NCBI GenBank assembly: GCA_903873705.1
Contig: CAIQPK010000064.1
Location: 1-64,000 of the forward strand
Direction: 5' to 3'
From: an uncultured Acidobacteriota bacterium
GTDB taxonomy: Bacteria > Acidobacteriota > Terriglobia > Terriglobales > Acidobacteriaceae
DNA: 64,000 nt
Shown here: positions 17,896-64,000 of the stretch, in pieces
Position numbering within the stretch: the stretch's first letter is position 1
Layout of the letters: each line of letters opens with the position of its first letter
Program-made: the position numbers and the translations under genes
Notes under the pieces: generated by a model
What the model saw: the letters and a program-made list of their open reading frames with translations, nothing else
Database searches by the model: none
Told to the model about the DNA's origin: nothing

Positions 17896-19181
17896 CCCAC
17901 GCCGAAGTCCTCATCGTCGGCGCCGGCCCCGCGGGCATCGCTGCCGCCACCGCTGCAGCACGCACCTCTCGCAGCGTCCTGCTGCTCGACGACAATCACG
18001 CCCCCGGCGGCCAGATCTGGCGCACAGATAGCCTCGCCCCCAACCCACGCGATCGCCATCGCGACGCCGCGCTCACTAGCCTCCAGCAATCCGGCGCACA
18101 GCTCCTCTTCAACACCCGCGTCTGCGACGCCCCCGCACCCGGCATCCTAACCACCCTCTCTGGCGAGGCCATCACGCACATCGAGTACGACAAGCTCATC
18201 CTCGCCACGGGCGCACGCGAGCGCCTCCTCCCCTTTCCCGGCTGGACCCTTCCCGGCGTCTCCGGCGCAGGCGGCCTGCAGGCCCTCACCAAAGGCGGCT
18301 TCCCCATAGCCGGCAAACGCGTCGTTGTCGCCGGCACTGGCCCGCTGCTCATCGCCGTCGCCGCACATCTCGCCGCCGCACACGCCAACATAGTCTGCGT
18401 CGCCGAACAAGCCACCCTCACCCAGATGGCCGCCTTCGCCTCCGCCATCGCATCCAGCCCCGCAAAAATCTGGCAGGGCATAAAATTTCGCGCGCAACTC
18501 CGCGGCGCTCCGTACCACACCAGCACCTGGCCCATCGCCGCGCTGGGCGACACGCACCTCACCTCCGTCCGCCTCACCGACGGCTCACGCACCTGGGAAG
18601 AACCCTGCGACTATCTCGCCTGCGGCTTCCACCTCGTGCCCAACACCGAACTCGCCAGCCTCCTCGGTTGCACTTTCAACGGAGACTTCGTCGCTGTCGA
18701 CGTCCTCCAGCGCACCTCCATCGGCAACATCTACTGTGCCGGCGAACCAGTCGCCATCGGTGGCCTCGACGCCGCACTCATCCAGGGCGAAATCGCCGGC
18801 CTCGCCGCCACCGATCAACTCCAGCAGGCCCAGGCTCTACACCAGCGCCACGCCACATCGTTGCAGCGTTTCGTCACACGCCTCGAAGCCGCCTTCCGCC
18901 TCCGTCCCGAACTCCTCACTCTCGCCCACCCCGAAGACATCGTCTGCCGCTGCGAAGACGTGCGCTTCGAGCAGCTGGTCCCCTACACCTCATGGACCGC
19001 CGCCAAGCTTCAAACGCGCTGCGGCATGGGCCCCTGCCAGGGACGCATCTGCGGTCCCGCCACGCAATCACTTTTCGGATGGAAGCCAACCTCGGTCCGC
19101 GCCCCACTCTCGCCGGTCCCGGTCTCCGCCTTCATCCAATTCGACCTACGCACCCCAACCGCACCACAGGAGATCCCATGA
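17892..19181 (+). CDS. NAD(P)/FAD-type flavoprotein subunit of the hydroxyproline dehydrogenase complex
   Basis: A 429-residue pyridine-nucleotide-disulfide-type flavoprotein. It has two dinucleotide folds (IVGAGPAGIAAATAAARTSR and VVVAGTGPLLIAVAAHLAAA) with the linking ATGARERLLPFPGW segment. A C-terminal Cys-rich BFD-like cluster reads CRCEDV then CGMGPCQGRICG. This matches the alpha subunit of octopine/nopaline oxidases and the LhpE-type subunit of D-hydroxyproline dehydrogenase. It overlaps both neighbours by four bases. The three-subunit assembly probably delivers electrons to the respiratory chain. Confidence 0.9.
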   Translation: MTHAEVLIVGAGPAGIAAATAAARTSRSVLLLDDNHAPGGQIWRTDSLAPNPRDRHRDAALTSLQQSGAQLLFNTRVCDAPAPGILTTLSGEAITHIEYDKLILATGARERLLPFPGWTLPGVSGAGGLQALTKGGFPIAGKRVVVAGTGPLLIAVAAHLAAAHANIVCVAEQATLTQMAAFASAIASSPAKIWQGIKFRAQLRGAPYHTSTWPIAALGDTHLTSVRLTDGSRTWEEPCDYLACGFHLVPNTELASLLGCTFNGDFVAVDVLQRTSIGNIYCAGEPVAIGGLDAALIQGEIAGLAATDQLQQAQALHQRHATSLQRFVTRLEAAFRLRPELLTLAHPEDIVCRCEDVRFEQLVPYTSWTAAKLQTRCGMGPCQGRICGPATQSLFGWKPTSVRAPLSPVPVSAFIQFDLRTPTAPQEIP

Positions 19182-51065: not shown

Positions 51066-51271
51066 GTCCGCCGCCAGCCCGTGCAATTGCCGTGACTAAA
51101 ACCGCTCTCGCTTTCAGCGTTACTGGTAGGACTCCTTTCCCTCGTCCGCGAACACCCCACCAAAGCCTCTTCTCCCTGCCCCGGCCAGCCCTGGTCCCGG
51201 CGGGGCGGCCCCGGTATCGTTTTCGCGACCAAGGATTGGCGTCCTTTGGAACTTTTCCCAGGAGACCCTTC

Positions 51272-54200
51272 ATGACCGCTCGCCGCCTGCTGCTCCCACT
51301 TTTCTTCCTGATTTCCTGCATTGCCGCCGGTGCCCAGGTCTCGCGCCAGACCACCGTCAGCACCCGCGCCGGCAGCGGAACGGCAGGCTACAACGTCAGT
51401 CAGGATGGCGCCGCAGCAACCGCCGCGCAGCTCAACACCCCCCAGGGCGTCGTCACCGACGTCATCGGCAACATCTACATCGCCGACACCGCCAACAACC
51501 GTGTCCGCAAGATCGACGGCCGCACCGGCATCATCACCACCATCGCGGGCAACGGCACCGCCGGCTATCGCACCGCCGACGAGAACGTCGTCGCCACCTT
51601 CGGCGAACTCAACGCCCCACAGGACCTCGCCCTCGACGGCCTCGGCAACCTCTACATCGCCGACACCGGCAACCACCGCGTCCGCAAGGTTGTCCTCAGC
51701 ACCAACATCATGACCACCGCCGCAGGCAACGGCGCCACCACCTACAACCAGCAGGAGCTCGGCAACCCATACGACATGGCCATCAGCAAGCCCACCGGCA
51801 TCGCCGTCGACCCCTTCAACAACCTCTACATCGTAGACGCCGCCCTAAACCGCGTCTTCTACGCCGGCCTGAACATCGCCAACAACGGCGTTCAGCAAGG
51901 CAAGATCCGCACCTACGCCGGCAACGGCACCGCCGCCTACACCAATGCCGCCGGCGAAGAGAACGTCACCGCGACCATCGCCCACCTCTCCGCCCCGCAA
52001 AGCATCGCCGTAGACCGCTACCAGGTCGTGTACATCGCCGACTCCGGCAACGGCCGCATCCGAAAGGTAGACACCAGCAACAAGATCACCACCATCGCCG
52101 GCGACGGCACCGCCTACTCCGCCGCCACCGAAGGCGCACTCGCCACCGCCGCCGGCATCGGCGCCGTCACCTCCATCCGCACCGACATCGTCAAAAACCT
52201 CTACCTCTCCCTCGGCTCCGGCAACCGCATCCTCAAACTCTCCGTCGTCACCGGCAAGCTCTCCACCTACGCCGGCACTGGCACGACAGACTTCATCGAC
52301 CGCACCATCCCCACCGCCGCCGCATTCAACGCGCCCGCAGGCATCGCCGTCGACGCCGCCGGCACCCTCTACATCGCCGACTCTGGCAACCATCGCCTCC
52401 GCTCCATCCCCGTCGCCACTGGAAACCTCCTCTTCCCCCGCACCGCCGTCGGCAGCAGCGACACCTCGCTCTCCTTCATCATCTCCGCCGACTCCGCCAC
52501 AACCTTCACCAGCGCCACCGTCATCACGCCCTCCGGCAACACCCCCGAGTTCACCCTCGGCACACCCACCTGCTCCACCGGATCGTCAATCGCCACCGGC
52601 GCCACCTGCAGCATCCCCGTCACCTTCACCCCCTTGAAGCCCGGCCGCCGCATGGCCCCCATCGAAATCGTCACCGCCGCCGGAACCCAGCGCTTCGGCC
52701 TCAGCGGAGTAGGCGGTGGCCCGCTCGTCATCTACTCGCCCAACGTCTCCACCCCCTTCGCCGGTTCCACCACCGGCTCTTACACCGCTGGTGAAGACAA
52801 CGGCCCCGCCATCGCCGGCCACTTCCTTACCCTCTCGTACCTCGAAGTCGACGCCGCCGACAACATCCTCATTGCCGACGCCCGCGGCTCCCGCATCCGC
52901 AGCATCTCTCCCTCCGGCATCGTCACCACCCTCGCCGGCAACGGTCTGCAAGCCTGGGTCGCCGCAGATGAGGGCGCACTCGCCACCAACGTCGGCCTCG
53001 CATTCCCCTCCGACGCCGTAGCCGACGCCGCCGGCAACATCTACATCGGCGACGCCAGCAATGGACGCATCCGCAAAATCGACGCCGTTACCAAAAGAAT
53101 CACCACCTACGCCGGCAACGGTAACACCAGCGGCAACGGCAGCGACGGCATCCTCGCCACCGCAGGCCCCGTAGGCGGCACCTTCCCTCTCTTCATCGAC
53201 CAGCAGGGCGACCTCTACTTCACTGACAATCGCTTCGGCACCCGCCGCATCGACGCCGCCACCGGCTACGTCAACGCCGTCGTCTCCAACATCGCCAACC
53301 TCACCGGCGCTCTCAACTGCGGCTCCTGCCAGGGCCGCCCCGTAGTCGACGACTTCGGCACCCTCTACATGGCTGGCACCGCTCTCTACCGCGTCAACCA
53401 GATGGTCGGTACCATCGGCGTTGTAGGCGCCGCCACCAGCCCCGCCACCGCCGTCTACGCCGCCTCGGTCTCGCCCAACGGCGACCTCCTCTTCTACCTC
53501 GGCAACAGCAACGTCACCCAGTACAGCGTCACCGCCGAAGCCTTCTCCACCGTCGCCACCTACCCCAGTCCCTCCACCGGCTTCGTCCTCGACTCCACCG
53601 GCAACGCCGTCTTCCAGACCGTCGCCGGCTACCAGCTCGTCAGGACCGCCTCGCAGACCGCCAAGCTCGCCTTTACCCCCACCACCGTCGTTGGTGCCAC
53701 CAGCACCGACAGCCCCAAGACCCTCACCCTCTTCAACATCGGCAACGCGCCTTTCACCCTTCAGGTCCCCAATAACGGCCTGAACCCCTCCGTCACCTCC
53801 GACTTCCAGCTCACCAGCAGCAGCACCTGCCCCCAGCTCTCCACCGTCTCCTCGCCGAATGGCCTCAACCCTGCCACCGGCTGCAAGTACGGCGTCAACT
53901 TCATCCCCGTGGCCCCCGGCCCCGTCGTCGGACAAGCTCTCTTCACCGATAACCAGTTCGGCTCCGCCACCCCGGTCACCCAGAGCGTCTCGCTCACCGG
54001 CACCGCTTCCGGCACGGCCGTTACCACCTCCCTCGGCATGACCGGCCTCGGCAACACCATCGCGGGCACCGCGCAGACCATCACCGTCACCGCCTACTCC
54101 GGCGTCGACCAGACCCATATCGCCACCAACTACACCGGCACCGTCACCTTCACCACCAACGACACCAACACCGGCGTCATCCCCGCCGCGTACACCTTCA

Positions 54201-57200
54201 CTTCCGCCGACGCCGGCGTCCACACCTTCACCGTCACCCTCAAGCTCGCCAACGACCGTGCCCGCGTCGCCGTCACCGACAACAGCAACGCCGCACTCAC
54301 GGCCTCAACCACCGTCAACGTGACACCCGCCAAAGCCGTCACCATCACCGCGCTCTCTGGAACCCCGCAGAGTGTAGCCACCAACGCCATCTTCACCACC
54401 AGCCTCACCGCCGTGGTCAAAGACACCTACGGCAACCCCGTCCCGGGCGTTTCCGTCACGTTTGCCTTCCCCTCCACCGGAGCCAGCGCCACCGTCACGT
54501 CCACCACGCAGACCACCGACGGCCTCGGCCAGGCGCACGTCCTCCCCACCGCCAACGCCACCACCGGTGGCTACAATGTGTCCGCAACCGCAGTCGGCGT
54601 CAGTTCCTCGGCCTTCTTCCAGATCACCAACACCGCCCCTGTCTACGCCTTCACCATCCTGGCCAACGTCACCTCCCTCCCCTACGGTCCTGATGTCCGC
54701 CTCTCCGCCCACATCAGCCCCAACTCCTCCAACGGACACGACCCCTCCGGCACCGTCACCATCTACGAAGGCGCAACCGTCCTCGCCACCGGCCCCGTTC
54801 CCGCCGGCCACGCTGACTTCACCTTCCTCGTCCCCGCCCCCTCGGTAGGCGTCCACACCTACAGCGCCTCCTACACCGGCGACAGCGTCTACCCCGCCGC
54901 CACCCAGGCCAACACCACCATCGTCGTTACCGTCGCCAAGGGCGAGTCTTCGATCCAGATACCCTTCACGACGACGATTCAGCGTCCCGGCTCCTTTGCC
55001 GTCACGGTGGAAAATCTCAACGGAGCAGACAGCTCGACCAAGGCCTACATCCGTCCCTCGGGAGTGGTCACCTACACCATCACCGCGGCCTGCGGTTCCG
55101 GAGCCGTCCTCACCGGCAGCCTCACCCTGGTGAACGGCGCAACGACGTTCCCCATTCCCGCCGACTGCGCCGCCCGCACCTACGGCATCGACTACGCTTA
55201 CGCCGGCGACAGCATTTACAACGCCACCACCATCCCGCGCCACACGGACCTCACCGTCACCGCTCCGGTAGCCACCATCAGCATCACCAACCTCGACCAG
55301 AACTACGACGGCACACCCAAGCCCGTCACCGTCACCACCACCCCCGCCGGACTCGCTTACAGCGTCAGCTACTCCGGCTCCAACGGCGTTCCCACGCTCG
55401 CCGGCATCTACTCCGTCACCGTCACCATCACTGACCCCAACTACACCGCCAGCGCCACGGCCACCCTCACCGTCCACGCCGGTCCCACCCAGATCTTCTG
55501 GCCGAACCTCAATTCCATCGTCTACGGCACGCCCCTCAGCACCACGCAGCTCAGCGCGACCACCACCATCCCCGGCGTCTTCTCCTACAACCCCGTAGCC
55601 GGGACCATCCTCACCCCCGGCAACTACGTCCTCAGCGTCACCTTCACGCCGAACGACAGCCCCAACACCCCCACGACCGCCACCCAGGCTCTCACCGTCA
55701 CCAAGGCCGGCCTCACCATCAAGGCCGTAGACGCCGGTCGCATCTACGGCGCCGCTAACCCCGTCTTCACCGCGAACGTCACCGGCGCGGTCAACGGCGA
55801 CACCTTCACCACCAGCGGCACCACCACCGCCACCACCACCAGCCCCGTTGGCACCTACCCCATCGCCCCGTCCGTAACCGGCGCCAACCTCGCCTACTAC
55901 ACCGTCACCAGCGTCAACGGCACGCTTACCGTCTCAGGAGCCCCCGCGACCGTCACCCTCTCCAACCTCAACCAGGTATCCGACGGCTCGCCGAAACCCG
56001 CCACCGTCACCACCACCCCCGCCGGTCTCGCCACCACCGTCACCTACAACGGCAGCACCACCGCTCCCTCCACACCCGGCAGCTACTCGGTCGTCGCCAC
56101 CATCACTGACGCCAACTACACCGGCACCGCCAACGGCGTCCTCGTCATCACCGCCGGCGCCGCCACCGTCACCTGGAACAGCCCCGCCGCCATCGCCTAC
56201 GGCACCGCGCTCAGCGCAACCCAGCTGAACGCCACCGCCTCCGCTGCCGGCGCCTTCGTCTACACCCCCGCTGCCGGAACCGTCCTCTCCCCCGGCACCC
56301 AGACCCTCAACGTCGTCTTCACCCCCACCGCGGGCGGTCCCACCACCTCAGCTAACGTCACCCTCGTCGTCAACAAAGGCACCCTCACCGTCACCGCAGC
56401 CAACGCTTCGCGTCTCTTCGGAGCAGCTAATCCCCCGCTCACCGCCACCATCACAGGCGCGGTCAACGGTGACATCCTCACCGCCACAGCCACCACCTCC
56501 GCCACCACCGCCAGCGCCATCGGCACCTATCCCATCATCCCCTCCGTCACCGGAACCAACGTCGCGGCCTACAACGTCACGCTGATCAACGGAACCCTCT
56601 CAGTCCTCTCCGGCACGCCGACCGTCACCCTCACCTCCAACAAGCCCTCGACCTTCGTCGGTGACACCGTCACCTTCACCGCCACGCTCTCCGGCGCAGG
56701 AGCCACACCCACCGGCACCGTCGAGTTCTTCAACGGCTCCACCTCCCTCGGCGTCAAGACCCTCGCCGCCGGCGTAGCCACCGTCTCCACCAGCACCCTC
56801 ACCGCCGGCGTCTACAACATCACCGCCGTCTACTCCGGCGACACCGCCTACAGCACCGCCACCTCGGCCATCGTCGTCCAGACCATCTTTACCTCCGACT
56901 ACAGCATCGTCGTCAACCCCACCGTCCTCACCATCATCCGCGGTGGCAGCGGCACGGCCACCTTTACCGTCACGCCCATCGGCAACTTCCACGACACCAT
57001 CACCTTTGCCTGCAACTCGCTTCCCACCTACGCCACCTGCACCTTCGCCCCGCCCACGCTGACACCTAACGGCGGCCCCGTCTCCACCACCCTCACCATC
57101 AAAACCTCGGCAGCCACCACCGCGCACCTCGATACCACCGCACCCTGGCAGCGCACCGGCTCCGGCGTCGCTCTCGCAACCATGATTGGCCTGCTCTTCA

Positions 57201-57400
57201 CCTTCCGCCGTCGCCGTTCGCTGCCGAAGCTGCTCCTCCTGCTTCTGCTCAGCCTCAGCGCACTCACCGCCATCACCGGCTGCGGCGGCTCACCCACCAC
57301 CACACCTGTTGGCAGTTACCCCATCACCGTCTCCGCCGGCGTCTCCACCGGAGGCAGCGGTTCCCACTCCGTGAACCTCACCGTCAACATCGTCAACTAG
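51272..57400 (+). CDS. Giant secreted NHL-propeller / Ig-like (MBG) repeat protein
   Basis: A 2042-residue surface protein. A signal peptide (LLLPLFFLISCIAAGAQ) precedes NHL-type propeller repeats (DVIGNIYIADTANNRVRKID and at least eight similar units). Two choice-of-anchor/ASPM-like Ig domains (LLFPRTAVGSSDTSLSFI and LAFTPTTVVGATSTDSPKTL) lie around and after a second set of NHL repeats. Big/MBG-type Ig repeats follow (QNYDGTPKPVTVTTTPAGL, QVSDGSPKPATVTTTPAGL, RIYGAANPVFTANVTGAVN, RLFGAANPPLTATITGAVN). Near the C-terminus, LATMIGLLFTFRRRRS and LLLLLLSLSALTAITGCGG form two hydrophobic segments. It is probably a cell-surface adhesin or scaffold. ATG at 51272 has GGAGACCC upstream. It is divergent from the ECF sigma gene. 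Confidence 0.85.
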   Translation: MTARRLLLPLFFLISCIAAGAQVSRQTTVSTRAGSGTAGYNVSQDGAAATAAQLNTPQGVVTDVIGNIYIADTANNRVRKIDGRTGIITTIAGNGTAGYRTADENVVATFGELNAPQDLALDGLGNLYIADTGNHRVRKVVLSTNIMTTAAGNGATTYNQQELGNPYDMAISKPTGIAVDPFNNLYIVDAALNRVFYAGLNIANNGVQQGKIRTYAGNGTAAYTNAAGEENVTATIAHLSAPQSIAVDRYQVVYIADSGNGRIRKVDTSNKITTIAGDGTAYSAATEGALATAAGIGAVTSIRTDIVKNLYLSLGSGNRILKLSVVTGKLSTYAGTGTTDFIDRTIPTAAAFNAPAGIAVDAAGTLYIADSGNHRLRSIPVATGNLLFPRTAVGSSDTSLSFIISADSATTFTSATVITPSGNTPEFTLGTPTCSTGSSIATGATCSIPVTFTPLKPGRRMAPIEIVTAAGTQRFGLSGVGGGPLVIYSPNVSTPFAGSTTGSYTAGEDNGPAIAGHFLTLSYLEVDAADNILIADARGSRIRSISPSGIVTTLAGNGLQAWVAADEGALATNVGLAFPSDAVADAAGNIYIGDASNGRIRKIDAVTKRITTYAGNGNTSGNGSDGILATAGPVGGTFPLFIDQQGDLYFTDNRFGTRRIDAATGYVNAVVSNIANLTGALNCGSCQGRPVVDDFGTLYMAGTALYRVNQMVGTIGVVGAATSPATAVYAASVSPNGDLLFYLGNSNVTQYSVTAEAFSTVATYPSPSTGFVLDSTGNAVFQTVAGYQLVRTASQTAKLAFTPTTVVGATSTDSPKTLTLFNIGNAPFTLQVPNNGLNPSVTSDFQLTSSSTCPQLSTVSSPNGLNPATGCKYGVNFIPVAPGPVVGQALFTDNQFGSATPVTQSVSLTGTASGTAVTTSLGMTGLGNTIAGTAQTITVTAYSGVDQTHIATNYTGTVTFTTNDTNTGVIPAAYTFTSADAGVHTFTVTLKLANDRARVAVTDNSNAALTASTTVNVTPAKAVTITALSGTPQSVATNAIFTTSLTAVVKDTYGNPVPGVSVTFAFPSTGASATVTSTTQTTDGLGQAHVLPTANATTGGYNVSATAVGVSSSAFFQITNTAPVYAFTILANVTSLPYGPDVRLSAHISPNSSNGHDPSGTVTIYEGATVLATGPVPAGHADFTFLVPAPSVGVHTYSASYTGDSVYPAATQANTTIVVTVAKGESSIQIPFTTTIQRPGSFAVTVENLNGADSSTKAYIRPSGVVTYTITAACGSGAVLTGSLTLVNGATTFPIPADCAARTYGIDYAYAGDSIYNATTIPRHTDLTVTAPVATISITNLDQNYDGTPKPVTVTTTPAGLAYSVSYSGSNGVPTLAGIYSVTVTITDPNYTASATATLTVHAGPTQIFWPNLNSIVYGTPLSTTQLSATTTIPGVFSYNPVAGTILTPGNYVLSVTFTPNDSPNTPTTATQALTVTKAGLTIKAVDAGRIYGAANPVFTANVTGAVNGDTFTTSGTTTATTTSPVGTYPIAPSVTGANLAYYTVTSVNGTLTVSGAPATVTLSNLNQVSDGSPKPATVTTTPAGLATTVTYNGSTTAPSTPGSYSVVATITDANYTGTANGVLVITAGAATVTWNSPAAIAYGTALSATQLNATASAAGAFVYTPAAGTVLSPGTQTLNVVFTPTAGGPTTSANVTLVVNKGTLTVTAANASRLFGAANPPLTATITGAVNGDILTATATTSATTASAIGTYPIIPSVTGTNVAAYNVTLINGTLSVLSGTPTVTLTSNKPSTFVGDTVTFTATLSGAGATPTGTVEFFNGSTSLGVKTLAAGVATVSTSTLTAGVYNITAVYSGDTAYSTATSAIVVQTIFTSDYSIVVNPTVLTIIRGGSGTATFTVTPIGNFHDTITFACNSLPTYATCTFAPPTLTPNGGPVSTTLTIKTSAATTAHLDTTAPWQRTGSGVALATMIGLLFTFRRRRSLPKLLLLLLLSLSALTAITGCGGSPTTTPVGSYPITVSAGVSTGGSGSHSVNLTVNIVN

Positions 57401-57865
57401 CAAGCGCTGGCGTTATGACCCACCCAACCATGGCGCCACCAAAATCTCACTTCCAAGCCCCGTAACACGCCCTTACTCGCATCACCGAAGAACCACTCCT
57501 CATCGCCTCTCGGTTCGCGCCTTGTCTCCAGACGCCGATCGAGAGGCGATGATCATGCCGCAGATACACCGCTTTTCCAGCGGGAAAGACGACAGCGTAA
57601 CCTCACCGTCAATCCAACGAATGGTTATAAGGAAGTGGTGGCCAGAGACGGGATCGAACCGCCGACGCCGGCCTTTTCAGGGCCGCGCGAACGAATCTTT
57701 GCAACAACTTAGAGCAGACCCGTCAACGCGGAAACACGCCGAAGCACGTGGAGGCGTTCTAATCGCGGGCGAGGAAGACGGGGCCCACGCGGGACAGGAG
57801 GTGCTGGTCAAAAGAGGCGACTCCTAGAAGTAGCTACGTCTCCAGACTTTCTCGTAGAGATACCT
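57401..57865. other. Host/island boundary region without a gene
   Basis: This 465-base stretch follows the host repeat-protein gene and holds the tRNA-Phe remnant. The 101-codon open frame across it reads through the tRNA antisense and is not credible. To the right of the remnant the base composition becomes more balanced than in the host part. Confidence 0.65.
57636..57685 (-). pseudogene. 3' remnant of tRNA-Phe(GAA); probable attachment site of an integrated element
   Basis: Read on the minus strand this 50-base piece has an anticodon arm CGGCC-CTGAAAA-GGCCG (anticodon GAA), a five-base variable loop, a T arm GGCGG-TTCGATC-CCGTC, the 3' acceptor strand TCTGGCC, discriminator A and CCA. The D arm and 5' acceptor strand are missing: the sequence beyond 57685 does not continue the tRNA. 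This is the usual footprint of an element integrated into a tRNA 3' end, with the intact gene expected at the other end of the island, to the right of the window. Confidence 0.88.
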
Positions 57866-58123
57866 ATGCCCTCAATGACCAACCACCCGGAATCGTCTCT
57901 ACAGATACATAACCCAAACTCGAGCAGCTTGGAGCGATTTGTCGACGCCACAACAGCGGCCGACTTCCTCTGCATTCGACCTCGTCATCTGCTCGAGCAG
58001 GCCCGGGCGCGCAGACTTCCAGCACACCCCATTGGAACAGGGAGTCGCTTTATTTGGCGGTTCAGGCTGTCCGAGCTTTCAGATGCCGTAACCCAATCGT
58101 TGCCTCGCGAGCCGACACGCTAA
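57866..58123 (+). CDS. Excisionase-like HTH DNA-binding protein
   Basis: An 85-residue protein with a short MerR/excisionase-type HTH: FVDATTAADFLCIRPRHLLEQARARRLPAHPIG then SRFIWRFRLSELSDAV. The conserved opening (D-x-x-x-A-A-x-x-L) and the RF-x-x-x-L tail are typical of the HTH_17 family. It is placed between the attachment site and the recombinase gene, where recombination directionality factors are found. It could equally be a regulator of the recombinase gene. Confidence 0.75.
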   Translation: MPSMTNHPESSLQIHNPNSSSLERFVDATTAADFLCIRPRHLLEQARARRLPAHPIGTGSRFIWRFRLSELSDAVTQSLPREPTR

Positions 58124-58206
58124 TGGTGCTCCAAGACAGAATAATTCCGACACGACCAGATCAGTGCAAAGAGTGTTAGCATTGCAGCCCTGACGGCCAC
58201 CCTCGT

Positions 58207-59793
58207 TTGGCGCAGTGCTCACGTGCCTTATCGTCCAGATACCTGTCGGGAAATCAGGCGCGCTTGCCGTCAGCCATTCGTGTTGCTCAATACGTCCGTA
58301 TGTCCACGGAGCATCAGCAGTATTCCACTGAGAATCAGGCTTCAGCCATCTTGGAATATGCGAAGTGCCACGAGATGGATATTGTTAAGACGTATGCTGA
58401 CCATGGCAAGAGCGGTCTCAATCTAGCGGGCCGCATCAGCCTCAGAGGTCTCTTGCAGGATGTCCAAGCCAATCAAGCTGACTTCGAGGCGCTGCTTGTT
58501 TATGACGTGAGCCGTTGGGGCCGATTTCAAGACGCTGACGAAAGCGCCTATTACGAATATGTCCTCAAGCAGGCTGGGATCAAGGTTCACTACTGTGCAG
58601 AGCCGTTTGAAAACGACGGCAGTCTCCCCTCGGCACTGATAAAGACGCTAAAACGCACAATGGCCGGCGAATACAGCAGGGAATTATCTGTGAAAGTGTT
58701 TGCTGGGCAATGCCGCCTGATTGAGCTCGGCTTTCGCCAAGGCGGACCGGCGGGGTTTGGCTTACGGCGTCACCTCGTGGATCAGGATCGCCATTTTAAG
58801 CAGATCCTTCAAGATGGAGAGCGCAAAAGTCTACAAACAGATCGTGTTGTCCTCGCAGCCGGACCCGCCGAGGAAGTGGACACGGTGCGATGGATCTTTG
58901 ACCGGTTTACCGAAGTTGGTGAGACCGAACGCCAAATCGCAGAGACGCTGAACTCAAATGGTGTCTCGACGGACCAGAGCCGCCCCTGGAACTCAGCCGG
59001 CATCCGTCAAATTCTTACCAATCCTAAGTACATCGGCAGCAATGTCTACAACCGGCGCTCCTACAAGCTGAAACGTAAGCGCGTCAAAAATCCTCCGGAG
59101 ATGTGGATTCTAAAGCCGGGAGCATTCGAGGCGATTGTGGAGCCGGAGGTGTTCGACAAAGCGCTGCACATCATTGAGAACCGCAATCGCTCTTATACGG
59201 ATGACCAGCTTCTGGAGCGACTTCGCGCGCTTTTGAAGAAGGTGGGAAAGTTGTCGGGCTTCATCATCAATCAAGCTGAGGATATGCCGTCAACCTGTGT
59301 CTACGTGTCTCGTTTCGGCACCTTACCGCGCGCCTACTCTCTCATTGATTGGAATCCGCATCGCGATTACAGTTTCGTGGAAATCAACCGGACTATTCGG
59401 GCTCAACATAAACCGTTGGTGGACTCCATCGTAGCGGAACTCAGGGGTAATCAGACGCTGGTTGATAGACAAGTAAAAACGGATCTTCTCACGATCAACG
59501 CTGAATACACCGCGGCATTGGTCTTGGCGCGTTGTTACACGACGCCGGGCGGCGCTCAACGTTGGATTGTCCGATTCGATGCTCCGTTACAACCGGACAT
59601 CACCATAGCAGCGCGGCTACTACCGGGAAATCGGGGGGTGCTGGACTACTACATCATTCCGCGAATCGCTGAGATCGGGTCTTCGATGAGGTTAGCTACG
59701 CACAATCCGATGTCCCTGGAAGTCTTTCGGTTTGATGACCTGTCATTTTTCTCTGCGCTTGGACGACGCGTAGCAGTTGAGGAGGCAGCATGA
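58207..59793 (+). CDS. Serine recombinase (resolvase/large serine integrase family)
   Basis: Up to 528 residues. The N-terminal resolvase catalytic domain reads VAQYVRMSTEHQQYSTENQ with the nucleophile Ser33 and conserved Arg/Gln neighbours, then YADHGKSGLNLAGR and LLVYDVSRWGRFQD. A recombinase domain follows (GFGLRRHLVD, TVRWIFDRFTEVGETERQIA, WNSAGIRQILTNPKYIGSNVYNRR). The zinc-ribbon Cys cluster of large serine integrases is not visible, and the C-terminal 200 residues are divergent. The start is uncertain: TTG at 58207 or TTG at 58264, none with a good ribosome site. It overlaps the next ParB-like gene by four bases and probably moves the element. Confidence 0.88.
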   Translation: MAQCSRALSSRYLSGNQARLPSAIRVAQYVRMSTEHQQYSTENQASAILEYAKCHEMDIVKTYADHGKSGLNLAGRISLRGLLQDVQANQADFEALLVYDVSRWGRFQDADESAYYEYVLKQAGIKVHYCAEPFENDGSLPSALIKTLKRTMAGEYSRELSVKVFAGQCRLIELGFRQGGPAGFGLRRHLVDQDRHFKQILQDGERKSLQTDRVVLAAGPAEEVDTVRWIFDRFTEVGETERQIAETLNSNGVSTDQSRPWNSAGIRQILTNPKYIGSNVYNRRSYKLKRKRVKNPPEMWILKPGAFEAIVEPEVFDKALHIIENRNRSYTDDQLLERLRALLKKVGKLSGFIINQAEDMPSTCVYVSRFGTLPRAYSLIDWNPHRDYSFVEINRTIRAQHKPLVDSIVAELRGNQTLVDRQVKTDLLTINAEYTAALVLARCYTTPGGAQRWIVRFDAPLQPDITIAARLLPGNRGVLDYYIIPRIAEIGSSMRLATHNPMSLEVFRFDDLSFFSALGRRVAVEEAA

Positions 59794-60650
59794 GCTCAGA
59801 AGTCATTGAACAAATTCCCGTGCATCTGATTCGAGTGGTAAATCCGCGAACGCGCAATAGAATCAAATGGCTTGCCATCGTTGCGAGTATCAAGGCCGTC
59901 GGCTTGAAGAAACCGATCAGTGTGTCTCGGCGGGATACCCCGGATGAGGACGGTAAGTTATACGACCTCGTTTGCGGCCAAGGCCGACTTGAGGCATTCG
60001 TTGAACTTGAACAGCCAACCATCGACGCGGCCCTCGTCAGCGCGTCAGAGGTTGACCGCCACTTAATGAGCCTCGTTGAGAACATCGCACGACGTCCCGC
60101 ATCCAACAGGACTATATATTTCGAAGTTCGAAGTCTGCTCGAACGAGGTAACGATTCACCCACGATTGCCCGAAAGCTGGGCCTTGATCGTGCCTATGTT
60201 CACGGCATTGTCCGCCTGGTCGAGCGAGGAGAAGCGCGTCTGATCGAGCAAGTTGAATCAGGAAAGTTGCCAATCTCGGTTGCGGTAGAGATATCGAATG
60301 GCGACGACGAGAATGTTCAAAAGGCGATGTTGGAGGCTTATGCAAGTGGATTACTTCGGGGATCTAAACTTCTCGCCATCCGCAAATTGATCAAGGAACA
60401 GAAAGCAAAACGTGAGGGTAAAGCCGCCCTCCCAGACAAGCCTCTAACCGGCGCTGCGCTGACAAATCTGTATAAGCAACGTGTGAGGGAGCAGCAACGC
60501 TTAGTCGTCAAGGCAGATCAGGCAAAGGAGAAGCTTCTGATAATCGTCGCTGTGATGCGTGAACTATTGGTCGACGAAGACCTTCTCACCATGCTCAGGG
60601 CTGAAAAGCTATCGGACATGCCAGAGCAATTGGCTCTCCGGGTACGTTAG
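59790..60650 (+). CDS. ParB/Spo0J-family protein of the mobile element
   Basis: A 286-residue ParB-type protein. The N-terminal ParB/sulfiredoxin-like domain (IPVHLIRVVNPRTRN, IKAVGLKKPISVSRR) carries VCGQGRLEAFVEL in place of the G-x-R-R CTP-binding box, and MSLVENIARR follows. The central HTH (SPTIARKLGLDRAYVHGIVRL) and a basic, coiled C-terminus follow. It overlaps the recombinase gene with a GAGGAGGCAGC site. No ParA is visible, so it may act as a recombination or replication accessory rather than in segregation. Confidence 0.87.
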   Translation: MSSEVIEQIPVHLIRVVNPRTRNRIKWLAIVASIKAVGLKKPISVSRRDTPDEDGKLYDLVCGQGRLEAFVELEQPTIDAALVSASEVDRHLMSLVENIARRPASNRTIYFEVRSLLERGNDSPTIARKLGLDRAYVHGIVRLVERGEARLIEQVESGKLPISVAVEISNGDDENVQKAMLEAYASGLLRGSKLLAIRKLIKEQKAKREGKAALPDKPLTGAALTNLYKQRVREQQRLVVKADQAKEKLLIIVAVMRELLVDEDLLTMLRAEKLSDMPEQLALRVR

Positions 60651-60657
60651 GAGAAAT

Positions 60658-61533
60658 ATGACAAAACTTCCCAAGGCTTTCGGACGCTTCATCGTCTCCA
60701 TTCCACTTGATCATCTGATCCCGCAAACAAGCATCTCCAAAGAGACAAGAACAGGCGTTGCATTTCGGCAGATTGCGGCCTCAGTGAAGGAGATCGGGCT
60801 AATTGAGCCGCTCGTTGTCTTTGAACGTTCGAAGACAGAATTTTTGATACTGGACGGCCACATTCGCGTAGACATTTTGAAGGGCAACGGCGTGAAAGAA
60901 GCCAAGTGCATACTCGCTGCAGACGACGAGTCTTATACCTACAATCGCAGAGTAAATTCGATTCCGCCGATTGCTCAACATCTAATGCTCCTCGAAGCGC
61001 TGCGAACGGGCCTCAGTGAGGAACGTATCGCGAAGTCACTCAACGTTGACATTTCCGTGATCCGACAGAAGCGCGACATGCTCAACGGCATTTGTCCCGA
61101 AGTAGTCGAAATGCTCCGAGATTTCAAACTGAATGCAAATATCTTCTCGTTGATGAAGAAGATGAAACCCTTGCGTCAGATAGAAGTCTCTGAACACATG
61201 ATTGCGAACTCAGCGTTCAGTCTCACTTTTATGCAGGCTCTCCTATTCGGCACTAAGCCAGAGATGTTGCTTGTGAAGCCTCGGCTCCGCGACGAAAAAT
61301 CGTCTGGAGAAGCGGCCACCGCGCGTTTTTCCGAAGAGAGCGACTCGCTGTTGAAGGATCTGCGCGGCCTTGAAGACTCTTTCGGCAAGGACGCACTCAC
61401 GTTAACAATTTGTCAGGGTTATATAGAGCGTCTCCTCAAGAACACTAGGGTGCTTCGGTATCTGGAGCGCAGGCATGACCGCTCTCTCGGTGCGCTCCAA
61501 CTCTGGTTGGAAAGGCGTCAGCTCGCAGGGTGA
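60658..61533 (+). CDS. Second ParB-like protein with RepB-type C-terminal domain
   Basis: A 291-residue protein. ParB-like N-domain: LDHLIPQTSISKETRTGVAF, VKEIGLIEPLVVF and ILDGHIRVDILKGNGV (DGH-x-R box). HTH: LSEERIAKSLNVDISVIRQK. The C-terminal part (FKLNANIFSLMKKMKPLRQI, EVSEHMIANSAFS) resembles the RepB C-terminal domain of plasmid partition proteins. The start ATG at 60658 is seven bases after the preceding stop, with TAGGAGAAAT upstream. It completes a three-gene recombinase-ParB-RepB unit. Confidence 0.83.
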   Translation: MTKLPKAFGRFIVSIPLDHLIPQTSISKETRTGVAFRQIAASVKEIGLIEPLVVFERSKTEFLILDGHIRVDILKGNGVKEAKCILAADDESYTYNRRVNSIPPIAQHLMLLEALRTGLSEERIAKSLNVDISVIRQKRDMLNGICPEVVEMLRDFKLNANIFSLMKKMKPLRQIEVSEHMIANSAFSLTFMQALLFGTKPEMLLVKPRLRDEKSSGEAATARFSEESDSLLKDLRGLEDSFGKDALTLTICQGYIERLLKNTRVLRYLERRHDRSLGALQLWLERRQLAG

Positions 61534-61616
61534 GAAGCGCAGAGACATGCCCTCTAAGTTTCTATTCTCATGTGTCGTTGCTGCCACGCGCGGCCAATGT
61601 CGGCGTCACTCTAACG

Positions 61617-62822
61617 TCAGCTACGCCCCGCGACTGATCGTAGCTTGCCGGCTCCTGAGTCGTATACAAATTCTGTGATCGACTCATCTTGAATACGTTC
61701 CATGACCTCGTTTATAACGGGAAGAGGCACAACGAACCACTCTCTCGGCTCGACCGGTATACCAAAGCGGTCGGGAAGGCGAAGCTGGAGTTGCGCTGAT
61801 GCGAATATGCGATGGATCGTCTGCTCAAACTTAAAGCGTCGGATGTTCGCAAGCTTCCATGTGGCGACGACCTCAACCGGTGCAAGCAGGTATGTGGCGT
61901 CCTTCTCCGCGTTGCATATGCGATCCTCCACGCGACCGCCGGTGACGCCGATTTTGTGGAGCACGTCGCGTATAGCGGCAATCTCGGGCTGTGGAGAAAG
62001 ACTGCGGAGGACGTAAATAGTGCCACTAGGGATGTCGTCCGGCTCCATGGTGTCGGTGAAAAGCGGGCCGAGGTCGGGCCTCGTGAGGCGGCGACCGTTC
62101 TCGTCTTTGTATAGGCCGCGTTGAAGAGAGCGGAGCAGCAGATTGCTTTCCGTTCCATTGCTGTAGATGACTCGAAGTCGAGCGTCAGTAGCACCATTGG
62201 ACTCGCGCCGCCAGGATTCGCCGACGTTATCGACGTACAGCAGCTGGCCGTTGTAGATGAAGAAGTCACCCGCTTCTATGCTCGCATCCTTCACGAACCG
62301 CTTGGCTTCGCGGAGGCCGGAGGTGAGTTCGCCTTGAGCTTGATCGAACAGGGGTTTGAATTTGTCGAAGTCTTTGCAGGGGAACCGGTCGGCAATCTGT
62401 TCGGCGGCTACAACGTCCCCGCGTTCTTCGAGAGGCTTTACGTGGCGGAGGACGCTGATGTCGGTGTCATTGGAGTCGTTGAGTTCGGCGAGAAGGTCGT
62501 CATCTTCCAGAGTGTCCACCGGCGATGTAGCCTCGGAACCGGCTAGGAGACGGTGAGGGTCCATCGGGAGCAGAATGGAGAGATCCTCGGCCGGAAGTTT
62601 GCGTAGCTGGTCAAGCCGGACAGCGTAGATGCGCTCAAAGATATCCCCGTCGTGGCTGTGTCGGGGGGGATGACCGTTTGTTTCATAAAAACGTAGGATG
62701 TCTTCAAAGCCGGCGATGATGCGCTCCTGCCGGGCAGTGTATCCGCCAGTTTGCTCCTCGGCGATTTCGACACCGAGTTCGTCGAGCAGTTCATCGCCTG
62801 TGAGATTCTTAACCTCTTTCAT
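61617..62822 (-). CDS. GIY-YIG (T5orf172-type) nuclease-domain protein
   Basis: A 401-residue protein. Residues about 266-340 form a GIY-YIG domain: IYVL (269-272), HKIG (289-292), conserved Arg301 and the metal-binding Glu333 in KFEQTIHRIF. The N-terminal 250 residues are acidic and unassigned, with a region QERIIAGFEDILRFYETNGHPP that recurs in such helicase-linked nucleases. The gene overlaps the upstream helicase gene by four bases (ATGA), so the two are expressed together and probably act as a pair, as in phage-defence or DNA-processing modules. It is convergent with the ParB/RepB unit. Confidence 0.82.
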   Translation of the reverse strand: MKEVKNLTGDELLDELGVEIAEEQTGGYTARQERIIAGFEDILRFYETNGHPPRHSHDGDIFERIYAVRLDQLRKLPAEDLSILLPMDPHRLLAGSEATSPVDTLEDDDLLAELNDSNDTDISVLRHVKPLEERGDVVAAEQIADRFPCKDFDKFKPLFDQAQGELTSGLREAKRFVKDASIEAGDFFIYNGQLLYVDNVGESWRRESNGATDARLRVIYSNGTESNLLLRSLQRGLYKDENGRRLTRPDLGPLFTDTMEPDDIPSGTIYVLRSLSPQPEIAAIRDVLHKIGVTGGRVEDRICNAEKDATYLLAPVEVVATWKLANIRRFKFEQTIHRIFASAQLQLRLPDRFGIPVEPREWFVVPLPVINEVMERIQDESITEFVYDSGAGKLRSVAGRS

Positions 62823-64000
62823 ACTTCTTCCTTCGCGGCCGCAGCCTTAGCTCTGCGGACGTATTCGGTATAGGCAGCGACACCTTCCGCAAGTTTTTTC
62901 TCCCAAGGGTCATTGGAGGATAGCGAGGGTGGTCTACTGCGCTCCCGTTTGAAGACGACGGCGCGCTTCGTGAAATCTCGCGCTTCTTCTTCGCTCATAG
63001 TCACACGTCGAGCTGCGATTTTCTCCTGCATTTGCCGAAGCGTCTCTGCATTCATGCTTCGAGCGAGCACGGAATAAGCCTCGCCAAATGGGTTGATGGC
63101 ATCGATGAGGTCGACGCTCAGCTCACGGACATGCAGGACAAATTTCTTGATCCCCTGGAGCAGGCCGAGGTTGGCATGGATCTTGTCTTCCTGCTTCTGT
63201 GCACTTTGCACCAAGGTGAGGGCTGCAACGGCACGCTGGCGGACGGCTTCCACATCGTCTTCGCTGAGTTCAGGGTAACGTTCACGGACGATCTTTGCGA
63301 CTCGAACCTGTGTGGTCTCTTGCGGAAGCGTATTCTCATTGTCGAAGAGCCCCTTGCTGATGGTTTCCTTATCCTGCACAACGGCGGCGATTACATCGTT
63401 CAGATCTTCGCGGCAGATTCTGGCCGCTTCCGGACTGATCTCTTTCAGACCGGTAATCTCGATGTTGATTCGTCCGTTCGTTTCATCGACCCCGACGTTG
63501 GTTCGGCCTTCCTGATAGCCCTCTTGGCCGTAATCGAAGCCGTCCTGCGGGCCTGCATTCTTGGGGCTGAAGTCGAACTTTGGCGCGAGGACCTGCTCCA
63601 TCAGCAGACTCGCGGCGATGGCCTTCAAGGTGTCGTTCACGGCTTCGACAACATCGGACTGTGCAGCCATCGGCTCGGCGATCAGATTGGTAAAGCGCGC
63701 ACTTGCCTTGCCGGGAGCATCGCGTGTCACGCGCCCAATGATCTGGACGATCTCGGTCAGGCTGTTACGGTATCCGACTGTCAGCGCGTGTTCGCACCAA
63801 ATCCAATCAAAGCCTTCTTTGGCCATACCGAGCGCGATGATGACGTCGACATGGTCGCGGTCATTTCGGTGCGCGGGATCTCGTAGGGCGCCAAGTATGC
63901 GGCTGCGCCGGTTGCCGTCTGTGTCATCCACAAGATCGGCGACTTTCAAGATGCGCCCCGTCTCTTTGTGCCTCACGAGATGGAAGTCAGTCTTCGGGTC
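62819..64000 (-). CDS. Superfamily 2 DEAD/DEAH-type helicase, C-terminal part (cut by the window edge)
   Basis: At least 394 residues, open to the right edge without a start. The visible part contains the second RecA-like domain: VIIALGMAKEGFDWIWCEHALTV and motif VI in LTEIVQIIGRVTRDAPGKAS. The long C-terminal region that follows has coiled or helical character (EAVRQRAVAALTLVQSAQKQ) and a basic tail. Motifs I-III lie outside the window. This is the type-III-restriction/RecG-like helicase style found with nucleases in defence islands; here its partner is the overlapping GIY-YIG gene. Confidence 0.85.
   Translation of the reverse strand, partial: DPKTDFHLVRHKETGRILKVADLVDDTDGNRRSRILGALRDPAHRNDRDHVDVIIALGMAKEGFDWIWCEHALTVGYRNSLTEIVQIIGRVTRDAPGKASARFTNLIAEPMAAQSDVVEAVNDTLKAIAASLLMEQVLAPKFDFSPKNAGPQDGFDYGQEGYQEGRTNVGVDETNGRINIEITGLKEISPEAARICREDLNDVIAAVVQDKETISKGLFDNENTLPQETTQVRVAKIVRERYPELSEDDVEAVRQRAVAALTLVQSAQKQEDKIHANLGLLQGIKKFVLHVRELSVDLIDAINPFGEAYSVLARSMNAETLRQMQEKIAARRVTMSEEEARDFTKRAVVFKRERSRPPSLSSNDPWEKKLAEGVAAYTEYVRRAKAAAAKEEV

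What the first reader, a model, noticed from the sequence alone, without database searches (positions are those of the whole stretch)
57636..64000. Left edge of an integrative element in tRNA-Phe(GAA)
A 50-base 3' piece of the tRNA gene is followed by lower-GC DNA with excisionase, recombinase, ParB and RepB-like genes. The orientation predicts the intact tRNA gene at the far right end of the island.
Basis: partly seen in the sequence, partly recalled or inferred. Interest (0 to 1): 0.6.

Follow-up and report, generated by a model that had tools for sequence, protein, structure and literature searches.

The report
Genomic island in a tRNA-Phe gene
A 26.5-kilobase piece of foreign DNA, carrying probable anti-virus genes, has inserted itself into the end of a bacterium's only detected phenylalanine tRNA gene, leaving a working copy of that gene at one end and a broken copy at the other, which is a common way for such islands to enter genomes.

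Summary
The 3' piece of tRNA-Phe(GAA) is at 57635-57688 (54 bp). An identical direct repeat lies 26,516 bp to the right on the same contig, inside the intact tRNA-Phe gene (contig 84152-84226, minus strand), beyond the window. The DNA between is 54.9% G+C, against about 63% on both sides. It is an ordinary tRNA-borne genomic island. The likely integrase is not the serine recombinase at its left edge but a tyrosine integrase at contig 76204-77400. Of 29 fetched relatives of that integrase, 22 sit beside a tRNA-Phe 3' end, and homologues of the window's 'excisionase' gene lie just upstream of the integrase in 19. An arm-like motif stands beside both cores. The cargo looks defensive: a GIY-YIG/helicase/MmeI-like cluster and a complete GAP1-N1 double-GTPase conflict system, which separates the integrase from its attachment site. 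The serine recombinase-ParB-RepB trio is probably a passenger: its gene order is conserved across several phyla, it occurs in islands at other tRNAs, and it lacks the zinc-ribbon cysteines of typical serine integrases. I saw no description of the trio in the listings of five paper searches. Excision was not tested, and no empty site was found.

The parts
57635..57688 (-). attL: 3' piece of tRNA-Phe(GAA), 54-bp direct repeat of contig 84151-84204 (the intact gene lies at contig 84152-84226, outside the window)
57702..57712 (+). arm-like motif CAACAACTTAG beside the core; its inverted partner (1 mismatch) lies just left of the right-hand core
57866..58123 (+). small HTH protein, excisionase-like; homologues lie directly upstream of related tyrosine integrases in 19 of 29 loci
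58264..59793 (+). large serine recombinase (resolvase plus Recombinase domains) without zinc-ribbon cysteine pairs; the ORF opens at 58207, probable start TTG 58264 from the alignment
59790..60650 (+). ParB-like protein (ParB_N plus RepB), second gene of the trio
60658..61533 (+). RepB-like protein, third gene of the trio
61617..62822 (-). GIY-YIG (T5orf172/MUG113) protein of a restriction-like cluster
62819..64000 (-). DEAD-box helicase; runs out of the window to contig 64885; followed at contig 64882-67671 by an MmeI-like type IIG enzyme

Best explanation
The region is the left end of a 26.5-kb integrative island in the 3' end of tRNA-Phe(GAA) (contig 57635-84204). A tyrosine integrase (contig 76204-77400), probably helped by small HTH excisionase-like proteins, is inferred to recombine the 54-bp tRNA 3' end of a circular form with the chromosomal tRNA gene. 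The element brings its own copy of the tRNA 3' end, so the gene at the right end stays whole while the displaced 3' end marks the left. The cargo is probably defensive. The serine recombinase-ParB-RepB trio at the left is a passenger module or accessory, not the integrase. Shown: repeat, intact tRNA, composition, gene content, linkage of the integrase family to tRNA-Phe, arm-like motif at both ends. Inferred: recombination, excision, mobility, defence.
For: Perfect 54-bp repeat and intact tRNA-Phe. G+C step at both ends. Tyrosine integrase, PF00589 90.1 bits against a cut-off of 27.1. Relatives of it occur in 231 of 300 family genomes; of the 29 best loci fetched, 22 have a tRNA-Phe 3' end shortly after the integrase stop on the opposite strand (21 by the script at 20-244 bp, L063 by eye), 4 lie beside tRNA-Val or -Asp and 3 beside no tRNA seen. 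The own element has the same orientation. HTH homologues precede the integrase in 19 of 29, and a second such HTH precedes the own integrase. The arm-like motif has 0 and 1 mismatch beside the two own cores, 0 of 200 base shuffles as good; the motif was taken from the own left end, so only the right arm is a test. It is within 3 mismatches beside 7 of 11 other readable broken ends. Serine recombinases 62% and 52% identical occur in islands at alanine-type tRNAs, so they do not seem to set the target.
Against: The own integrase is 6.75 kb from the intact tRNA, while relatives are within 244 bp; the GTPase operon lies between. No empty site was found: in 40 relatives no match of the left flank 57150-57660 reaches more than 18 bp beyond the tRNA. 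The right-arm motif is poor (3-5 mismatches) in 20 of 22 integrase relatives. Excision and integrase activity are untested. The recombinase gene nearest attL is the serine recombinase.
Confidence: 0.9

Rival explanations
1. The large serine recombinase of the trio integrated the island into tRNA-Phe; the tyrosine integrase is cargo.
For: It lies 0.6 kb from the broken tRNA end. tRNA 3' halves (by a sequence pattern) occur within 5 kb upstream of the recombinase in 11 of 86 genome-derived loci, the own included, and in 11 of 80 viral-collection loci, against 5 and 2 hits downstream (flank lengths not equalised; rows partly related; a shuffle control was run only, 0.2 hits on average).
Against: A 54-bp identical repeat is typical of tyrosine integrases (recalled knowledge). 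Trios with recombinases 52-62% identical are in islands at different tRNAs. In 72 of 80 trio loci ARAGORN finds no tRNA. Five of the viral-collection cases share one tRNA-fMet neighbourhood and so are not independent. The tyrosine integrase family is itself tied to tRNA-Phe.
Confidence: 0.07
2. The island is a fusion of two tRNA-Phe elements that once lay in tandem: one ending with the integrase at contig 77400, one carrying the GTPase operon, with the middle attachment site lost.
For: Only 14 bp separate the integrase stop from the GAP1 stop, and 6.75 kb separate the integrase from the tRNA. Tandem insertion at tRNA-Phe seems common: 8 of 29 relatives have a chimeric tRNA end beside the integrase. 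There are two HTH copies.
Against: No third match to the 54-bp core longer than 10 bp lies inside the island. A simple insertion of the GTPase operon beside the integrase would look the same.
Confidence: 0.3
3. The repeat is an assembly artefact or an old tRNA duplication unrelated to integration.
For: The genome is a draft of 94 contigs.
Against: Both copies lie on one 163,992-bp contig with different flanks; G+C steps coincide with the repeat; broken second tRNA-Phe pieces occur in relatives.
Confidence: 0.02

Closest known systems
tRNA-borne genomic islands with tyrosine integrases, such as the pheV island of E. coli (PMC11537424, search listing and start of abstract only; details recalled)
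   Same: Insertion at a tRNA-Phe gene, direct repeat of the tRNA 3' end, intact tRNA at one end, integrase of the Phage_integrase family, variable cargo
   Different: Different host phylum and integrase clade; the integrase is not next to the attachment site; the cargo is predicted defence, not pathogenicity
GAP1-N1 double-GTPase conflict systems of Kaur et al. 2020 (PMC7159879, 12 passages read)
   Same: GAP1-N1, a DO-GTPase pair, GASH and an effector joined to a GAAD domain, in neighbouring genes
   Different: The effector here is a calcineurin-like phosphoesterase; the gene set lies inside a tRNA-Phe island; the word Acidobacteria does not occur in that paper's main text
Large serine recombinases: SPbeta YokA, PhiC31, TnpX, Ccr of SCCmec
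   Same: Resolvase and Recombinase domains; weak profile matches
   Different: No paired zinc-ribbon cysteines in any of 35 sequences; followed by two ParB-like genes

Membership tests
tRNA-targeted tyrosine-integrase island | direct repeat of the tRNA 3' end at both ends | tested here: met
   54/54 identical
tRNA-targeted tyrosine-integrase island | intact tRNA at one end, 3' piece at the other | tested here: met
tRNA-targeted tyrosine-integrase island | encodes a tyrosine integrase of a clade tied to that tRNA | tested here: met
   22 of 29 relatives beside tRNA-Phe
tRNA-targeted tyrosine-integrase island | integrase gene next to the attachment site | tested here: not met
   6.75 kb away, GTPase genes between; usual but, from recalled knowledge, not universal, so I do not take it to exclude membership
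tRNA-targeted tyrosine-integrase island | empty site in relatives | tested here: inconclusive
   left flank has no counterpart beside tRNA-Phe in 40 relatives
tRNA-targeted tyrosine-integrase island | excision as a circle | not testable with these tools
   needs DNA
integrative conjugative element | relaxase and type IV secretion genes | tested here: not met
   none in Pfam scans of 24 island ORFs; not every small ORF was scanned
canonical large serine integrase | resolvase plus Recombinase domains | tested here: met
canonical large serine integrase | zinc-ribbon domain with cysteine pairs | tested here: not met
   0 of 35 sequences; structure model only moderately confident
GAP1-N1 double-GTPase conflict system | GAP1-N1, DO-GTPases, GASH and a GAAD-effector in neighbouring genes | tested here: met
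   all five genes adjacent on one strand, each named domain above its Pfam cut-off
GAP1-N1 double-GTPase conflict system | defence function | not testable with these tools
   predicted in the source paper; needs phage assays

The most novel reading that the evidence does not exclude
The serine recombinase-ParB-RepB trio is a distinct, widely spread and undescribed recombination or maintenance module. In it, two ParB-like proteins (the first with invariant CGxGRxxA and ENxARR stretches, which I recall as ParB CTP-binding motifs) control an unusual large serine recombinase lacking the zinc ribbon. It travels between tRNA islands, plasmids and provirus-like regions, at times next to defence genes.
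Probability: 0.35. Interest if true: 0.6.

Novelty: new member of a known kind. Interest (0 to 1): 0.33.

Why it matters
The island shows tRNA-Phe as a recurrent landing site in this bacterial family, with tandem insertions, and gives an integrase, a core and arm-like sites that can be tested directly. It also places an uncommon GTPase conflict system (DO-GTPase1 relatives in 8 of 300 family genomes, the own included), for which I saw no experimental test in a two-paper listing, on a probable mobile element. The associated trio is a widespread gene set with no description seen in the paper listings searched.

Tried and rejected
Serine recombinase as the integrase: considered because it lies at the edge; put down for the reasons given in the rivals. 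Trio as a stand-alone transposon: close pairs share about 3.9 kb (divergent small HTH, trio, short basic ORF) with differing flanks, but I saw no terminal repeats. A search of 60 genomes with the trio region of G370 showed no clear empty site; in one genome (G703) DNA from the trio's upstream side abuts the tRNA-end side directly, so the stretch between varies. A conserved sequence after RepB was found in 24 of 86 loci, mostly alphaproteobacterial, and not in the window's trio. Empty-site search by the left flank failed. The last 420 residues of the left-neighbour protein have no match within 1.5 kb of tRNA-Phe in 19 relatives' loci. Paper searches for the trio (7, 265, 6, 7 and 1 papers, of which 7, 20, 6, 7 and 1 were listed) and for acidobacterial tRNA-Phe islands (66 papers, 12 listed) showed nothing that describes them in titles or abstract starts; I opened only PMC7159879, by passages.

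Full report
Setting. The window is bases 1-64000 of a 163,992-bp contig (C64) of a 4.18-Mb draft genome, handle G000, with 94 contigs. Its relatives are unnamed; the named records with the closest relatives of its serine recombinase are mostly Acidobacteriaceae, so I take the host to be an acidobacterium.

The observation. The 3' piece of tRNA-Phe(GAA) is at 57635-57688. The search of the own genome found the same 54 bases at one other place, C64:84151-84204, on the same strand. There ARAGORN finds the intact gene at 84152-84226, minus strand, and Rfam a tRNA at 84155-84226 (67.6 bits, cut-off 29). ARAGORN finds no tRNA in the window. The distance between the copies is 26,516 bp. The island has 54.9% G+C against 62.6% left and 63.5% right.

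Gene content, contig coordinates. Left to right: HTH 57866-58123; serine recombinase 58264-59793; ParB-like 59790-60650; RepB-like 60658-61533. On the minus strand: GIY-YIG protein 61617-62822; DEAD helicase 62819-64885; MmeI-like type IIG enzyme 64882-67671 (PADLOC REase_MTase_IIG, 910 bits; the GIY-YIG protein and the helicase have only weak PADLOC matches, E above 5e-4); HNH 67761-68468; DnaJ 68615-69664; calcineurin-like phosphoesterase 70119-70799 (PADLOC candidate PDC-S10, 216 bits); weak alpha/beta hydrolase 70835-71410; small serine resolvase 71503-72021. Then unknown ORFs, a DUF1376 protein 74783-75850 and a second HTH at about 75936-76115, 57-60% identical in pieces to the first. Then the tyrosine integrase 76204-77400 on the plus strand. 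Finally, on the minus strand, GAP1-N1 77415-79433, DO-GTPase1 79441-80334, DO-GTPase2 80285-81214, GASH 81230-82291 and a phosphoesterase with a GAAD domain 82291-83580. No relaxase, type IV secretion or phage structural domain appeared among the 24 island ORFs scanned with Pfam; not every small ORF was scanned.

Which recombinase? A search of 300 genomes of the family found relatives of the tyrosine integrase in 231. I examined the 29 non-self loci that were fetched, the best-scoring ones, one per genome, not a random sample. In 22 a tRNA-Phe 3' end follows the integrase stop on the opposite strand: 13 intact genes, 8 chimeric ends as expected of tandem elements, 1 cut by the contig end. The script measured 20-244 bp in 21; L063 was added by eye. 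Four lie beside tRNA-Val or tRNA-Asp, and three beside no tRNA seen. Homologues of the window's HTH gene lie directly upstream of the integrase in 19 of 29. This ties the left-edge HTH to the tyrosine integrase and not to the serine recombinase: among the 80 named trio loci it has one hit, far from the recombinase.

Attachment site. To the right of the left core stands CAACAACTTAG (57702-57712). To the left of the right core stands its inverted form with one mismatch; none of 200 base shuffles matched as well. As the motif came from the left end, only the right-end match is a test. In the same scan the right arms of 20 of 22 integrase relatives have 3-5 mismatches; two same-genus tRNA-Phe genes (L026, L033) have one. 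Of 12 distinct broken ends with readable sequence, 8 including the own are within 3 mismatches, and the other 4 share a different motif by eye. I take these as arm-type sites; that is an inference.

What is unusual. In relatives the integrase is next to the tRNA. Here the GTPase genes lie between, and only 14 bp separate the two stops. Either the gene set was inserted there or two tandem elements fused. tRNA-Phe is a recurrent target: by my reading, up to 10 of 60 other genomes have a further tRNA-Phe-like piece. Three of them (G404, G415, G414) are confirmed as broken 3' ends by pattern; others are short, lie about 110 bp from the intact gene, or cover most of the tRNA, and may not mark islands. 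Only 6 candidates per genome were scored.

The trio. In 396 genomes of the phylum, 10 have a serine recombinase related at E 1e-20 or better, the own included. A profile scan of named genomes gave 573 relatives (limit reached), of which the best 80 were kept. ParB follows in 79 and RepB in 72; six of the eight without RepB end near the contig end, L095 and L157 do not. The rows are not all independent (for example L110 and L112 are identical over 15,483 bp) and many are metagenome bins. In 72 of 80 loci ARAGORN finds no tRNA. In PLSDB plasmids 61 of 72,556 records match at E 1e-60, in phage records 1 of 50,697 at E 1e-20; 103 stretches of the viral collection encode relatives, 80 kept; there ParB is present in 63 of 70 loci with room and RepB in 60 of 66. 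In Acidobacteria the trio lies in other tRNA islands. In G106 it is between an intact tRNA-Ala(CGC) and a perfect 46-bp 3' piece 29.5 kb away, where my integrase profile found no tyrosine integrase. In G370 it is within an array of 3' pieces of an alanine-type tRNA (83% identical to that tRNA-Ala; anticodon GGC by eye) spanning 116 kb, in an element with an HTH and an integrase of the window's clade beside one piece. L081 and L082 have the same tRNA piece 3.5-4.8 kb upstream. In G166 an intact tRNA-Ser lies near the trio but no nearby repeat of its 3' end was found. So similar trios are associated with different tRNA targets. The recombinase resembles large serine recombinases in its first 300 residues, but no sequence of 35 has paired zinc-ribbon cysteines. 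The model is of moderate confidence (pLDDT 78.7, pTM 0.61). The first ParB-like protein is a ParB/Noc relative by profile, with CGxGRxxA and ENxARR invariant in 33 sequences. In three sphingomonads, which share this DNA and so count as about one case, homologues of the same GIY-YIG, helicase and IIG genes lie beside the trio in another arrangement: 3 of 80 loci.

Against my reading. tRNA 3' halves lie within 5 kb upstream of the serine recombinase in 11 of 86 genome-derived loci and 11 of 80 viral-collection loci, more often than downstream (5 and 2 hits). Five of the latter share one neighbourhood, tRNA-fMet beside what I recognise from recall as gene-transfer-agent tail genes, with varying genes in between. 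I therefore keep the serine recombinase as a minor rival.

Known or new. The island is a new member of a known kind. The GTPase genes meet the definition of the GAP1-N1 systems (passages of PMC7159879; Pfam); a term search found only that paper and one other holding one of the terms (listing). The trio is the most novel part; its function is not known from any call.

Noticed in passing
L037, L173, L174 (G370:C1 about 3318933-3435208): An intact alanine-type tRNA followed by three further 3' pieces over 116 kb: a probable tandem array of islands.
   Followed up: partly
L171-L172 (G106:C1:893631-923246): A 29.5-kb island at tRNA-Ala(CGC) with the trio but no tyrosine integrase of the window's clade; its integrase is unknown.
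   Followed up: partly
L189, L192, L194, L195, L196: The trio lies between tRNA-fMet and tail genes that look like a gene transfer agent (recall), with varying genes (Fic-like, AbiE-like by recall) in the gap.
   Followed up: partly
L089, L091, L099, L110, L128 and others, just after RepB: A short, conserved basic ORF (MGTRTxxKRGDRGRRRTVGRIK...) after the trio, mostly in alphaproteobacteria; a second copy in L156 at 18375-18478.
   Followed up: partly
L045 (G401:C1:1722429-1735468): A 53-bp and a 27-bp tRNA-Phe 3' piece 13 kb apart lie about 1.35 Mb from the intact gene of the same single-contig genome.
   Followed up: no
L047 (G000:C54:54874-55134): A fragment of a second serine recombinase of the same family (56% identical over 87 residues), without ParB or RepB matches nearby.
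   Followed up: no
L037 5348-6195: The ParB gene of the G370 trio matches in two overlapping frames, so it may be frameshifted.
   Followed up: no
L004 9536-9624 (C64:85535-85623): An 8-bp tandem repeat array to the right of the tRNA.
   Followed up: no
window 51092-57400: A 2102-residue protein with NHL- and Ig-like repeats (by eye) is the left neighbour of the island; its C-terminal part has no match beside tRNA-Phe in 19 relatives' loci.
   Followed up: partly
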